Below, one piece after another: positions 1 to 5,336 of a stretch of DNA of 5,336 nt. Numbering within the stretch: position 1 is the first letter of the stretch; each line of letters starts with the position of its first letter. This stretch comes from a bacterium (GTDB taxonomy: Bacteria > Electryoneota > JAOADG01), in contig JAOADG010000021.1 of the NCBI GenBank assembly GCA_026417415.1, positions 1 through 5,336 on the forward strand, read 5' to 3'. The translations under genes were made by a program, and so were the position numbers. A model generated the notes under the pieces. That model was not told the origin of the DNA and ran no database searches. It saw only the letters and a program-made list of their open reading frames with translations.

Positions 1-1203
1 TTTTTCCAACTCCCTTACAAACCTTTCGCCACTTTTTCCGTCCAATTGATACAAATGCCTTTTGATGGCCTGCTCCATTCCTTGAAAAAGTGACTCACGG
101 GCATTTTCATTGTGTAGTGCGTGATGGAGTGCTGCAGGAAGTTCTTCGGTATGATAAATCGGAATACTAGCGCCATATTGATAGAAATCTAATTCAAATC
201 CTGCATCCATATACTTCAATTGAATAATAGGTAAACCCTTAAGCAAAGCATAGTAGGCAACAGTAGAAGATGCTACCAGCATAGCATCAAAATCATCCAA
301 CAAATCCACCGCATCCCCTTCGGTCTGAAGTTGAACTTGATTTGACTCGATTAGAGGAGATAATTCAGTTCGCAAAATGCGATCAACTTCATCAAAATCT
401 TTTCTTGATTTGATAAACAAAAAGTATCCCTGTTGGGTCACGGTAATTGCAATTTTGATAATTTCTTTTGCTAAACTATCTGGGTTTGTGTACTTTACAG
501 AAATCTGCAATGGATAGATAATTCTATTATTTAAGTTAGGTTTCAAGGTGCGGGGTTGGATAGCATGATCCATCATCACAGAGCCGATCAATTTCACGCA
601 TTCAGGTGGAAAAAACTTTTCATAGTATTCTTTTGCGATTGTACCGTAAACAAACACGTAATCACAATCCAACCCTAATGCATAAAACCAACGAAAAGTT
701 AAGCCATACCACCGATATACGACCGCATCAAAAAGATAACTCTTCACTCTTCTTAAAAATTTGCCCAAATTTTCTTTAACATTAAAGGTGGTTAACCCTA
801 ACGAACCTTCTTGATAATATACTGTAGGAATTTTTTTCAATTTCGAATAAGCAACTACTGGGAACGTAAAGACACTGGTATCATTGCACGTGACCAACAC
901 ATCAATATCTAAATTTACTTTCTGTTGCAACAAACGTCTTAGATTCTTAAACTTCCATAATCGTTTGAAGGAATAGGATCGCAAATTCGGATAATCAATG
1001 GGAAGTCGTTGAATAGGGACCCCTAAACCGGTATAACTTTTTTCGTATTCTTGTTTGGTTTCCGTTGCGAAAAAAACGACCTGATGTCCATGGTGAAGCA
1101 ACAATCGGGCAAGTGTGAGTATCATTTTTGTGGTCGCCACATTTTGAAAAATAGGGATCCCTACCTTCAATGGTTTTGGTATGGAGCAAGCATCTTGGTG
1201 CAT
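1..1203 (-). CDS. Glycosyltransferase-like protein (GT-B-type), 3' end cut by window
   Basis: The frame from ATG 1203 stays open for 401 codons to base 1, so the C-terminus lies outside. The N-terminus (residues 12-46) reads as a Rossmann-like beta-alpha-beta: KVGIPIFQ, an amphipathic helix, then GHQVVFFAT. A second domain begins near residue 225. It contains IIYPLQ (228-233), FLFIKSRKD (261-269) and an LLDDFDAMLVASSTVAYYAL stretch (301-320) followed by KGLPIIQ. This D...SST...AL..G.P pattern is typical of the nucleotide-sugar-binding half of GT-B enzymes, CDP-glycerol transferases and UDP-sugar epimerases. The visible end, LDGKSGERFVREL, resembles the C-terminal helix of such proteins. No signal peptide is seen, so it is probably cytoplasmic or membrane-associated. 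It follows neuD by 15 bases in the same frame with no clear Shine-Dalgarno site; a TTG at codon 12 is an alternative start. By context it could transfer a nonulosonic acid or a neighbouring sugar. The exact family is not recognised. Confidence 0.5.
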   Translation of the reverse strand, partial: MHQDACSIPKPLKVGIPIFQNVATTKMILTLARLLLHHGHQVVFFATETKQEYEKSYTGLGVPIQRLPIDYPNLRSYSFKRLWKFKNLRRLLQQKVNLDIDVLVTCNDTSVFTFPVVAYSKLKKIPTVYYQEGSLGLTTFNVKENLGKFLRRVKSYLFDAVVYRWYGLTFRWFYALGLDCDYVFVYGTIAKEYYEKFFPPECVKLIGSVMMDHAIQPRTLKPNLNNRIIYPLQISVKYTNPDSLAKEIIKIAITVTQQGYFLFIKSRKDFDEVDRILRTELSPLIESNQVQLQTEGDAVDLLDDFDAMLVASSTVAYYALLKGLPIIQLKYMDAGFELDFYQYGASIPIYHTEELPAALHHALHNENARESLFQGMEQAIKRHLYQLDGKSGERFVRELEK

Positions 1204-1218
1204 GGTTCGTAATAAGGG

Positions 1219-1869
1219 TTAAGATGTAATTCTAATAGGTTTTGCAGGAACACCTACCACAGTTTCTCCATCCGCCACATCTTTCACTACAACGGCACCC
1301 GCTCCCACAATCACGTTATTTCCAATATGGATGCCTTGCCGAACGGTAGAACCTACCCCAATCATACATCCTTCTCCAATTTGAACCGCTCCACTTAGCG
1401 TTACACCGGGGGCTATATGAGTATGCGCACCAATATGGCAATCGTGATCAATATTTGCTCCTGTATTCACGATTACATTTTCACCGATAACTGTATAAGG
1501 GTTAATAATTGCACCTGCCATAATACTAACCCCTTCACCTAAAGTGACACTACTTGAAACGATACTTTTTGGATGTATCGCTTGGATGGGAGTCAATCCC
1601 CAACGTTTTCCTAATTCGAACAATTTTTTTCGTTTTTCAGCACCTTTCACAGTACCCACACCTAAAAAGAAATGTGTGACTCCCATAGAAGCAGCGTTTT
1701 CTAACCAATCATCGTTCCCTAAAATGGGAACCCCGTCAAGCATGTTAAGGGAATCGTCAGGAGATAAAAGCCCGACGATTTCTAAATTCTGGTGAAACCG
1801 TAAGATTTCAAGCATTACTTTACAATGTCCACCTGCTCCAAGACCGATCACTTTGGTGTTTGGTTTCAA
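1219..1869 (-). CDS. neuD: NeuD/PglD-family sugar O- or N-acyltransferase
   Basis: This is a two-domain acyltransferase of 216 residues from the preferred TTG start. Residues 6-20 (KVIGLGAGGHCKVML) form the PglD_N Rossmann motif GxGGH that binds the sugar nucleotide in PglD-type enzymes. Residues 98-100 (IHP) lead into the left-handed beta-helix of hexapeptide repeats, about 103-205. The probable catalytic base is His142 in GANIDHDCHIG, the position of the active-site His in PglD relatives. It closes with GVPAKPI (206-212). The TTG at 1869 is chosen because GGGAG lies 5 bases upstream and the TTGA overlaps the neuC stop by 4 bases. The longer TTG at 1881 adds four residues but has no ribosome site. 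In sialic clusters NeuD usually O-acetylates the sugar. The same fold also serves as a 4-N-acetyltransferase (LegH, PglD) in legionaminic or bacillosamine synthesis, so the substrate is uncertain. Confidence 0.87.
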   Translation of the reverse strand: MKPNTKVIGLGAGGHCKVMLEILRFHQNLEIVGLLSPDDSLNMLDGVPILGNDDWLENAASMGVTHFFLGVGTVKGAEKRKKLFELGKRWGLTPIQAIHPKSIVSSSVTLGEGVSIMAGAIINPYTVIGENVIVNTGANIDHDCHIGAHTHIAPGVTLSGAVQIGEGCMIGVGSTVRQGIHIGNNVIVGAGAVVVKDVADGETVVGVPAKPIRITS

Positions 1870-3032
1870 TGGTTCTCCCAACGAATATCATAAAAAGTTT
1901 TGCGAAGTAGTTTTGTATCAATCGGTATTTTTTTAATGGTCTCAACGATTATATTTGAAGCATTCCCATTTCCATAAGGATTTGTAAGATCAGTAAGTGA
2001 GTTCCGAAATTCTTCTGAAGTTCCGTAAAGAATGGCATTAAGAATGGATTCGGTATCTACATCACAATCAAGAACATTTTTAGCACGTATTCGCCCTGCC
2101 TGACGTTCTCCAATGTTAATGACAGGCAATTGGAAGGTTGCAGCTTCAATAATCCCACTGGAAGAATTGCCTACCATTGCACGTGCATGTTTCATCATGC
2201 TAAAATAGGCCTCATTGCCTAAATTGGGCTGGAAAAAGGCGTTGGGATGGTTTTGAACATAGTTTAGAATAGCATGGTTAATGAACTGCCCACCCGGATC
2301 AGCATTGCTCATGGTGAATACTACTGGAAATCCAGAGCGTTCAATCGCTTGCAAGAAACAGTGAACCAACGTTTCTATTCCATTAGGGTTCATGGTCTCT
2401 GGATGCAAGGTTGCTAAAAGAAATTTTTCGGGAAGGGGTTGACCGAGTAAATTAGACAATTGTTCTCGACTCAATAAAACCAAATCGTTTAAGGCATCCA
2501 ATGAGGGTGCACCACTAACATGCACTCGCCAAGGTTCTTCTCCCATTTGAATGATTCGCCGTGCATATGCTTCTGTTGAAGCAAAATGGAGATGACATAA
2601 TTTTGTTAACGAGTGTCGCAAAGAATCATCAATTGCACCAAAAGTGAGTTCGCCACCATGGATGTGTGCTACCGGAATATGAAAGGGGAGTGCTGCGAGG
2701 GCGGCGCAATACATATCAAACCGATCACCCAATACGATCAACAAGTTTGGTTTCCTAAGTTCAAACTCACGAGCAAAACCCAACAATCCTTGTCCCATTG
2801 TAAGAGCAACACCACTCGGTTCATCATTTTCAATAAGCGAAGGAATTTTAACCATATCGCTATATCCATCTTGTTCTACCATTTGATAGGTAGAACCATA
2901 TCGTTCGGATAAATGCATTCCAGAAATGTAAATACGAAGGTGAATATCTGAAAAAGCACGGAATTTTTTAAGGATGGGGGTATAGATACCATAATCAGAA
3001 CGGCCTACAGTAACTACACCTACAGTTCTCAT
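1866..3032 (-). CDS. neuC: Hydrolysing UDP-N-acetylglucosamine 2-epimerase (NeuC/LegG family)
   Basis: The 388-residue product is full length for the family. It would convert UDP-GlcNAc, or a 2,4-diacetamido UDP-sugar in the legionaminic route, to the free manno-configured sugar plus UDP, the substrate of the next enzyme. Two Rossmann-like domains are visible. The first carries GRSDYG (10-15), the LGDRFD motif (101-106), HIHGGE (123-128) and DDSLRHSLTKL (135-145). The second carries SGAPSLD (173-179), TLHPET (208-213), SNADPGG (242-248), the UDP-phosphate-binding GNSSSGIIEA (288-297) and NIGERQAGRIRAKNV (306-320). All are hallmarks of the NeuC type rather than the non-hydrolysing WecB type. 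The ATG overlaps the neuB stop as ATGA, and GAGGA lies 6 bases upstream, so the start is secure. Its own end overlaps the neuD start by 4 bases. The enzyme is cytoplasmic. NeuC and LegG cannot be told apart reliably from motifs alone. Confidence 0.93.
   Translation of the reverse strand: MRTVGVVTVGRSDYGIYTPILKKFRAFSDIHLRIYISGMHLSERYGSTYQMVEQDGYSDMVKIPSLIENDEPSGVALTMGQGLLGFAREFELRKPNLLIVLGDRFDMYCAALAALPFHIPVAHIHGGELTFGAIDDSLRHSLTKLCHLHFASTEAYARRIIQMGEEPWRVHVSGAPSLDALNDLVLLSREQLSNLLGQPLPEKFLLATLHPETMNPNGIETLVHCFLQAIERSGFPVVFTMSNADPGGQFINHAILNYVQNHPNAFFQPNLGNEAYFSMMKHARAMVGNSSSGIIEAATFQLPVINIGERQAGRIRAKNVLDCDVDTESILNAILYGTSEEFRNSLTDLTNPYGNGNASNIIVETIKKIPIDTKLLRKTFYDIRWENH
1875..1879 (-). promoter_or_regulatory. 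Ribosome binding site that selects the TTG start of neuD
   Basis: GGGAG on the minus strand lies 5 bases before TTG 1869, inside the final codons of neuC. The TTG overlaps the neuC stop as TTGA. A TTG twelve bases earlier (1881) is in frame but has no such site, so the shorter protein is preferred. Confidence 0.6.
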
Positions 3033-4075
3033 TCCAAATCCTCGTATCGCAACATACTTCCCATTGGTAGATCTCGCAGTATTCTTTTACCCACGATGGA
3101 CTGAAGTTCCGATGGAGGAATACCTGTACCCGGCCGTCTCGCTATCAAACAATCCGATGTTATAGTACTTCCTTTTTTTAATGGTTTAGATGTAAATAAA
3201 CTTTTTCTAGCAACTTCGGTGACATCTTTTTCAATCGCATGCGGTCTTTTTATACCATCTCCAAGAGCGATCTCTACGGAACGAATTCCCTGAACCATTG
3301 CTTTTAACTCAATGGGTGATAATGAAGCTTTATGATCAGGTCCCGGTAAATTGCGATCTATAGTAAAATGTTTTTCTATGATACAAGCACCAAGCGCTAC
3401 AGCAGCGATAGGGATATGAATCCCTTCCGTATGATCTGAAAAACCGATGGGAATCTGAAATTCCTTTTCTAAAGTCAGCATTGCCCTTAGGTTAATTGAA
3501 TCGTAAGGTGCAGGATAACTGCTGGTGCAATGTAATAGTGCCAAGGGAGGATTTCCATTTTGGAAAATGATTTGAACGGAACGTCGGACTTCTTCTAAGG
3601 TTGCCATTCCCGTGGATACAATTAAAGGAAGTCCCATTTTAGCTAAATGGATTAGAAAAGGAAAATTCGTCAATTCACCTGAAGGGACCTTAATTGCAGC
3701 CACTTTTAGTTCGTTCACTAAGAAGTCCGCACTTTTTTCTTCAAAGGGGGAAGATAAGAACACCAACCCTTTTTTTTCAGCATATTCTTTTAATTGAAAA
3801 TAGATGGGCAATGGCAATTCCAACTGCTTGAGCATTTCCAATTGGTTGATGGTTTCACCTACCGTTTCCTGTTGGTATACGGCTTTAGGTGCATTTACAT
3901 CGGCTAAATCTTCGGCACGAAAGGTTTGAAATTTGACGGCATTTACACCTGCTTCTGCAGCAATATCAATCAATTGAAAAGCAAGTTCAGGATTACCATT
4001 ATGGTTGACTCCCGCCTCAGCGATAATGAAGCATGGATGGTTTTTATCAATCATTTTGTTTTGAATAACGAACAT
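3029..4075 (-). CDS. neuB: Nonulosonic acid synthase (N-acetylneuraminate or legionaminate synthase)
   Basis: The 348-residue product has the full two-domain NeuB architecture. It condenses an N-acyl-mannosamine-type sugar with phosphoenolpyruvate to give a nine-carbon nonulosonic acid. The TIM barrel shows IIAEAGVNHNG (17-27), KFQTF (48-52), KVPSGELTN (129-137), STGMAT (154-159), LLHCTSSYPAP (180-190), GFSDHTEG (211-218), IEKHFT (233-238) and GPDHKAS (245-251). His215 and His236 occupy the metal-ligand positions known from Neisseria NeuB. The C-terminal SAF (antifreeze-like) domain runs from about 287 to 345 and includes ARRPGTGIPP, with Arg314 as the residue that reaches the partner subunit's active site. 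The start at 4075 is preferred over Met8 because the first residues align with the usual N-terminal strand; the ribosome site is weak (TGGA). It follows neuA by 3 bases and overlaps neuC by 4. The HCT-YPAP and DHT-GIH segments look somewhat LegI-like from memory, which is not decisive. Confidence 0.95.
   Translation of the reverse strand: MFVIQNKMIDKNHPCFIIAEAGVNHNGNPELAFQLIDIAAEAGVNAVKFQTFRAEDLADVNAPKAVYQQETVGETINQLEMLKQLELPLPIYFQLKEYAEKKGLVFLSSPFEEKSADFLVNELKVAAIKVPSGELTNFPFLIHLAKMGLPLIVSTGMATLEEVRRSVQIIFQNGNPPLALLHCTSSYPAPYDSINLRAMLTLEKEFQIPIGFSDHTEGIHIPIAAVALGACIIEKHFTIDRNLPGPDHKASLSPIELKAMVQGIRSVEIALGDGIKRPHAIEKDVTEVARKSLFTSKPLKKGSTITSDCLIARRPGTGIPPSELQSIVGKRILRDLPMGSMLRYEDLE
3039..3043 (-). 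promoter_or_regulatory. Ribosome binding site of neuC
   Basis: GAGGA on the minus strand, 6 bases before ATG 3032, lies inside the last codons of neuB. Together with the ATGA stop/start overlap it indicates translational coupling of neuB and neuC. It is the clearest Shine-Dalgarno site in the window. Confidence 0.75.
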
Positions 4076-4078
4076 AGA

Positions 4079-4807
4079 TTATTTTCCACTTATCCAGGGG
4101 AGTACGATTTTCCTATTCTGTAAAAGAAATTCAGCGTACTCAAAATCTTCTAATGTATCAATATCCACTGAACGAAGAGAGGGAACTACGTAGATTAGAT
4201 TTTTCCCATTTCTCCAAGATTTTTTTTCAGAAAGAAGAAAATCACGCCGCCAAAGAAAGTACATTCCATTTAGCATATATATAGTAGGTAAATCTTGCCT
4301 ACGCAAATAGGTTTTTGATAATTCAGACAATTCAACAAGATATCCATCTTTTTGTTCAACACAATATCCTATAGGGTTGTGCTTTGGAATAGTGACACTG
4401 ACAATGCCATCTGCTTCAGGTTGTTGTAGTAACATAGTATAACATTGTTCAAATTCATTTGGAATTCTAAACGGGCTGGTAGGTTGTAAAAGGAGTAAAA
4501 AATCGTATTGCAGTTTATCCATTTTCTCAATCTCGATCAATGCATGTTGCAAAACAGGTAGCATCGGTGTTTCGTCTTGTGCCAATTCACTAGGTCGTAA
4601 AAAGGGTACTTCGCAATTGTATTGACGTGCAATACCAGCGATTTCTTCCGAATCGGTTGAAACAATGGTTTTCGTAATGGATGGACACAACTTTGCAAAT
4701 TCAATGGAATGTGCAATTAAGGGCTTCCCACCCAACAACAGAATATTCTTTTTTGGTAACCCCTTAGAACCACTACGAGCGGGAATTACCGCTAAAACGC
4801 CTTCCAT
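4079..4807 (-). CDS. neuA: CMP-nonulosonate cytidylyltransferase (CMP-sialic or CMP-legionaminic acid synthetase)
   Basis: The 242-residue product activates a nonulosonic acid with CTP, giving the CMP-sugar donor and pyrophosphate. The N-terminal P-loop-like signature IPARSGSKGLPKKN (8-21) is the CTP-binding motif of this family. STDSEEIA (50-57), RPSELAQDETP (71-81) and LLQPTSPFR (106-114) follow in the expected order. RRQDLPTIYMLNGMYF (169-184) is the sugar-binding segment. VDIDTLEDF (214-222) carries Asp215 and Asp217, the usual metal-binding pair. It is a single-domain enzyme, without the C-terminal esterase-like domain of E. coli NeuA. The ATG at 4807 fits the family start, and AGGTG sits 4 bases upstream. 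It is the first gene of the visible operon, with about 400 non-coding bases before it and only 3 bases to neuB. Close relatives include LegF (CMP-legionaminate), which motifs alone do not exclude; KdsB (CMP-Kdo) is unlikely given the neighbours. Confidence 0.93.
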   Translation of the reverse strand: MEGVLAVIPARSGSKGLPKKNILLLGGKPLIAHSIEFAKLCPSITKTIVSTDSEEIAGIARQYNCEVPFLRPSELAQDETPMLPVLQHALIEIEKMDKLQYDFLLLLQPTSPFRIPNEFEQCYTMLLQQPEADGIVSVTIPKHNPIGYCVEQKDGYLVELSELSKTYLRRQDLPTIYMLNGMYFLWRRDFLLSEKKSWRNGKNLIYVVPSLRSVDIDTLEDFEYAEFLLQNRKIVLPWISGK

Positions 4808-5203: not shown

Positions 5204-5336
5204 ATTGTGGTTTGCGGGCAGTCAACGGTTAGTTATATTTCTTCAGATGCTTCATACTCCAAACTTGCTGTTGTGGTTTGCGGGCAGTCAACGGTTAGTT
5301 ATATTCTCATCTCTCAACTCAATATCAACATCAAAG
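5204..5336 (+). CRISPR. Start of a CRISPR array, 36-base repeats and 30-base spacers (type II-like)
   Basis: Two repeat copies lie at 5204-5239 and 5270-5305. They are identical over 35 bases and differ only at the first base (A in the first, G in the second). The unit begins GTTGTGGTTTG, has GCGGGCAGTCAACGG in the middle and ends TTATATT. Spacers at 5240-5269 and 5306-5335 are both 30 bases and unrelated to each other. The period is exactly 66, and the last window base (5336, G) is the expected first base of a third repeat. A 36/30 geometry, a GTTGT start and an AT-rich end are usual for type II arrays written in crRNA orientation, hence the plus-strand call. Type VI-B (Cas13b) arrays share the 36/30 geometry, but their repeats normally end in CAAC, unlike this one. 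No cas genes or tracrRNA are in the window. The array continues beyond it. Confidence 0.88.

What the first reader, a model, noticed from the sequence alone, without database searches (positions are those of the whole stretch)
5204..5336. CRISPR array beginning at the window edge beside a sialic-type sugar operon, probably type II-C
Two 36-base repeats at a 66-base period with different 30-base spacers are directly visible, and base 5336 matches the predicted first base of a third copy. The repeat's GTTGTGG start, AT-rich end and 36/30 geometry fit type II arrays. The effector is not in the window, so the type, and whether the locus is an orphan array, are open.
Basis: partly seen in the sequence, partly recalled or inferred. 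Interest (0 to 1): 0.62.

Follow-up and report, generated by a model that had tools for sequence, protein, structure and literature searches.

The report
Contig-edge end of Cas9 CRISPR array
This is the far end of an ordinary bacterial CRISPR-Cas9 immune memory (almost certainly subtype II-C), cut off by the end of an assembled DNA fragment; the start of its Cas9 gene and its matching helper RNA lie at the end of another fragment of the same genome.

Summary
Two 36-base repeats (5204-5239, 5270-5305; 35 of 36 bases identical) flank a 30-base spacer, and a second spacer ends at 5335. Base 5336 is the expected G, but the window is the whole contig (C11), so the third repeat cannot be read. No other copy lies in the genome. 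Another contig end of the same genome (C37) carries the first 86 codons of a Cas9. Just upstream and divergent is a tracrRNA gene whose anti-repeat pairs with this repeat along its whole length (-50.8 kcal/mol; shuffles -15.5, sd 2.9), followed by hairpins and a terminator. Two genomes of the same phylum have near-identical repeats (32 and 30 of 36) in cas9-cas1-cas2-array loci, with the array convergent to the cas genes and no csn2 or cas4: subtype II-C. By their layout, C11 and C37 face each other across an assembly gap holding the rest of cas9, probably cas1-cas2, and the rest of the array; this join is inferred. The repeat's 3' end (GTTATATT) resembles the II-C repeat-embedded -10 box. Verdict: an ordinary new member of a known kind.

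The parts
5204..5239 (+). CRISPR repeat 1 (array-terminal, cas-distal by inference; first base A, not G)
   Evidence: distal position inferred from the layout of relatives L009, L010
5240..5269 (+). spacer 1, 30 nt, target unknown
   Evidence: no credible target
5270..5305 (+). CRISPR repeat 2, GTTGTGGTTTGCGGGCAGTCAACGGTTAGTTATATT; 3' GTTATATT resembles the II-C repeat-embedded -10 box
   Evidence: motif gnTAnaaT from PMC4607530
5306..5335 (+). spacer 2, 30 nt, target unknown
   Evidence: no credible target
5336..5336 (+). expected first base of repeat 3; the contig ends here

Best explanation
The feature is the cas-distal end (oldest spacers, by inference) of a type II-C CRISPR array, cut by the contig end. 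Shown: the array; a cas9 5' end and a divergent tracrRNA gene at the end of contig C37 of the same genome; and predicted full-length pairing of the tracrRNA with this repeat. Inferred: C11 and C37 face each other across an assembly gap that holds the rest of the array, cas2, cas1 and the rest of cas9. Inferred mechanism: each repeat carries a -10 box that starts a crRNA in the following spacer; the crRNA repeat pairs with tracrRNA; RNase III trims the duplex; Cas9 with the dual RNA cuts DNA that matches the spacer.
For: Repeat and spacer anatomy 36/30. Cas9 N-terminus (RuvC-I GLDIGTNSIGWA and arginine-rich bridge helix), 86 aa cut by the contig end, TIGR01865 E 6.7e-24, five PADLOC Cas9 models. 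Anti-repeat at L005:1405-1442, alignment score 44 against a shuffle maximum of 25; duplex -50.8 kcal/mol against shuffled mean -15.5, sd 2.9, minimum -26.2. tracrRNA folds at z -4.08, has a terminator at L005:1357-1338 and a promoter-like site at 1479-1451. Same-phylum loci L010 and L009: cas9-cas1-cas2 followed by an array whose repeats match 32/36 and 30/36 and lie on the opposite strand, with the same type of tracrRNA upstream of cas9; their Cas1 is TIGR03639 (type II), E about 1e-86. Published II-C marks: 3' -10 box gnTAnaaT, convergent array, no csn2 or cas4, degenerate proximal repeat (PMC4607530); promoters in each repeat (PMC3656092).
Against: Most of cas9 and any type II cas1 or cas2 are missing from the assembly, so function cannot be judged and II-C is not read directly. 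C11 and C37 are not physically joined. The repeat's -10 box departs from the published motif at one fixed base (GTTATATT). No spacer target was found.
Confidence: 0.92

Rival explanations
1. A type II array served in trans: the array in the window is remote from the cas9 locus and uses its tracrRNA and Cas9 from a distance.
For: No physical join between C11 and C37 is available.
Against: Only two repeat copies exist in the assembly, both on C11, so a second array beside cas9 is not seen. Both contigs end in the locus and in the orientation that the relatives' layout predicts.
Confidence: 0.05
2. Type II-A or II-B instead of II-C.
For: The genes after cas9 in this genome are unassembled.
Against: The closest repeats (30-32 of 36) sit beside cas9-cas1-cas2 loci where the array directly follows cas2, without csn2 or cas4, on the opposite strand, with Cas9 of 985-1007 aa. 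The repeat ends in a -10-like box, not in C as II-A repeats do (PMC4607530).
Confidence: 0.02
3. A type VI-B (Cas13b) or class 1 array, or a chance two-copy direct repeat.
For: 36/30 geometry and a GTTGTGG start also occur in Cas13b arrays (own knowledge); the genome has a class-1-like cas1-cas2 on C17.
Against: A tracrRNA anti-repeat matching this repeat lies beside cas9. The C17 array has a wholly different repeat, GTCGCAATCCCCTAAATCGGGGTAGGCAATTGAAAG. Near-identical repeats form arrays of several copies in relatives.
Confidence: 0.01

Closest known systems
   Same: Repeat 32/36 and 30/36 identical, tracrRNA gene upstream of and divergent from cas9, Cas9 N-terminus about 45-51% identical, spacers of about 30 nt
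   Different: Here the locus is split over two contig ends, and cas1, cas2 and most of cas9 are unassembled
Type II-C-like loci of Gammaproteobacteria MAGs (L012, L013)
   Same: Cas9 N-terminus 53% identical, same gene order, same position of the anti-repeat, 66-base period
   Different: Repeat only 23 and 26 of 36 identical
Campylobacter jejuni and Neisseria minimal type II-C systems
   Same: -10-like box at the repeat's 3' end and 36-nt repeat; promoter in each repeat in C. jejuni (PMC3656092, PMC4607530)
   Different: Repeat sequence differs; promoter activity is untested here

Membership tests
CRISPR array | identical direct repeats with regular, different spacers | tested here: met
   two repeats, 35/36 identical, 66-base period, two different 30-nt spacers; further copies are cut off by the contig end
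CRISPR type II | Cas9 effector encoded in the genome | tested here: met
   first 86 codons only, RuvC-I and bridge helix, C37 end; the rest is not in the assembly
CRISPR type II | tracrRNA with an anti-repeat matching this array's repeat | tested here: met
   L005:1405-1442, duplex -50.8 kcal/mol against shuffled -15.5, terminator
CRISPR type II-C | cas9, cas1 and cas2 only, no csn2 or cas4 | tested here: inconclusive
   gap in this genome; met in same-phylum relatives L009 and L010
CRISPR type II-C | array downstream of and convergent with the cas genes | tested here: inconclusive
   the ends of C11 and C37 are oriented as this predicts, but are not joined; met in L009 and L010
CRISPR type II-C | -10 box (gnTAnaaT) at the 3' end of the repeat | tested here: met
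   GTTATATT, five of the six fixed positions (motif from PMC4607530); promoter activity not tested
functional immunity (not a membership criterion) | spacers match a mobile element beside a PAM | tested here: inconclusive
   no credible target in IMG/VR exact 20-mers, phage records or own genome; only two spacers, so no match is uninformative

The most novel reading that the evidence does not exclude
The gap beside the array hides an unusual arrangement, such as a cas9 without its own cas1-cas2 that borrows the class-1-like adaptation pair on C17, or an insertion that disrupts cas9. The assembly does not exclude this: only one cas1 was found in the whole genome.
Probability: 0.06. Interest if true: 0.35.

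Novelty: new member of a known kind. Interest (0 to 1): 0.12.

Why it matters
It adds a type II-C Cas9 locus with a well-defined tracrRNA from a sparsely sampled phylum (3 of 39 held genomes, this one included, showed a related Cas9) and shows how such a locus can be split over contig ends. Otherwise ordinary.

Tried and rejected
The first Cas9 domain search (PF18541) was uninformative, since no control genome rang. The exact repeat is absent from viral contigs, and no copy with up to 3 mismatches lies in the other genome of the family. The array region has no phage match. Spacer searches gave only chance-level matches (E 2-8) or none outside the array itself. No Rfam family matches in the window. 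The cas1 on C17 was rejected as the partner of this array, because it sits beside a different repeat and scores far better as a general or class 1 Cas1 than as type II. One Pfam call failed on a wrong frame.

Full report
The array. The window holds two copies of a 36-base repeat at 5204-5239 and 5270-5305 (35 identical bases; the first copy has A instead of G at base 1) and two different 30-base spacers, 5240-5269 and 5306-5335. Base 5336 is G, the expected first base of a third repeat. No further copy, allowing three mismatches, lies elsewhere in the genome.

Cas9 and tracrRNA. A search with the Cas9 model TIGR01865 found one place, at the right-hand end of contig C37. There an open frame starts with a RuvC-I motif and an arginine-rich bridge helix and is cut by the contig end after 86 codons. 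A search with a relative's whole Cas9 found no further piece in the assembly. About 50 bases upstream, reading away from cas9, lies a tracrRNA gene. Its anti-repeat (L005:1405-1442) aligns to the window's repeat with score 44 (best of 200 shuffles 25), and the predicted duplex covers essentially the whole repeat, interrupted only by a small internal mismatch region (-50.8 kcal/mol; shuffled mean -15.5, sd 2.9). The RNA folds better than all 200 shuffles (z -4.08), ends in a clear intrinsic terminator, and has a promoter-like site placed just upstream of its expected start. The Cas9 system on C37 is therefore the partner of the array on C11.

Subtype and layout. Within the phylum, two of the 38 other genomes searched encode a related Cas9. 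Their loci (L010, L009) hold what is missing in ours: cas9 (985 and 1007 aa), cas1 (type II model TIGR03639, E about 1e-86), cas2, then the array on the opposite strand, with no csn2 or cas4 between. Their arrays also run into contig ends. Their repeats match the window's at 32 and 30 of 36 positions, and each has an anti-repeat upstream of cas9. More distant Cas9 relatives in Gammaproteobacteria share this layout. These are the marks of subtype II-C, as described in PMC4607530. In the relatives the 3' end of the array (in crRNA sense) adjoins cas2. The window shows the 5' end, so it is the cas-distal end. C11 and C37, both cut at their right-hand ends, would face each other across a gap holding the rest of the array, cas2, cas1 and most of cas9. 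This join is inferred, not shown.

Mechanism. II-C repeats commonly carry a -10 box at their 3' end (gnTAnaaT; PMC4607530), and in Campylobacter jejuni each crRNA starts from the promoter in its upstream repeat and is then trimmed once by RNase III on the tracrRNA duplex (PMC3656092). The window's repeat ends in GTTATATT, one fixed base off that motif. The likely mechanism is thus standard II-C immunity. The altered first base of the first repeat fits the reported decay of the proximal repeat in II-C arrays. Neither spacer has a credible target.

Surroundings. The five genes left of the array, all on the minus strand, form a nonulosonic (sialic-type) acid operon: a cytidylyltransferase, NeuB, NeuC, NeuD and a glycosyltransferase-like protein. 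They run away from the array and have no evident link with it. A second CRISPR array with a different repeat, beside a class-1-like cas1-cas2 pair, begins contig C17.

Verdict. A real CRISPR array and an ordinary one: the cut end of a type II-C locus, a new member of a known kind.

Noticed in passing
L004:30-138 and 496-1886 (G000:C17 start): A second CRISPR array with an unrelated 36-nt repeat (GTCGCAATCCCCTAAATCGGGGTAGGCAATTGAAAG) next to cas2 and a class-1-like cas1; its effector genes were not looked for.
   Followed up: partly
window 1-4807, minus strand: Nonulosonic (sialic-type) acid operon: PseF-like cytidylyltransferase below the PseF cut-off, NeuB, NeuC, NeuD and a glycosyltransferase-family-4-like protein.
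   Followed up: partly
G000:C11 and G000:C37 right-hand ends: The assembly lacks most of cas9 and any type II cas1 although completeness is given as 100%; the missing piece may be an unbinned contig.
   Followed up: partly
L009:24-53 and about 420-449: In relative G032 the spacer after the contig's first (partial) repeat recurs after a later repeat of the same array (TCGCCAGGAAGGACACCGCGTCATCGCTAA): a spacer duplication or an assembly overlap.
   Followed up: no
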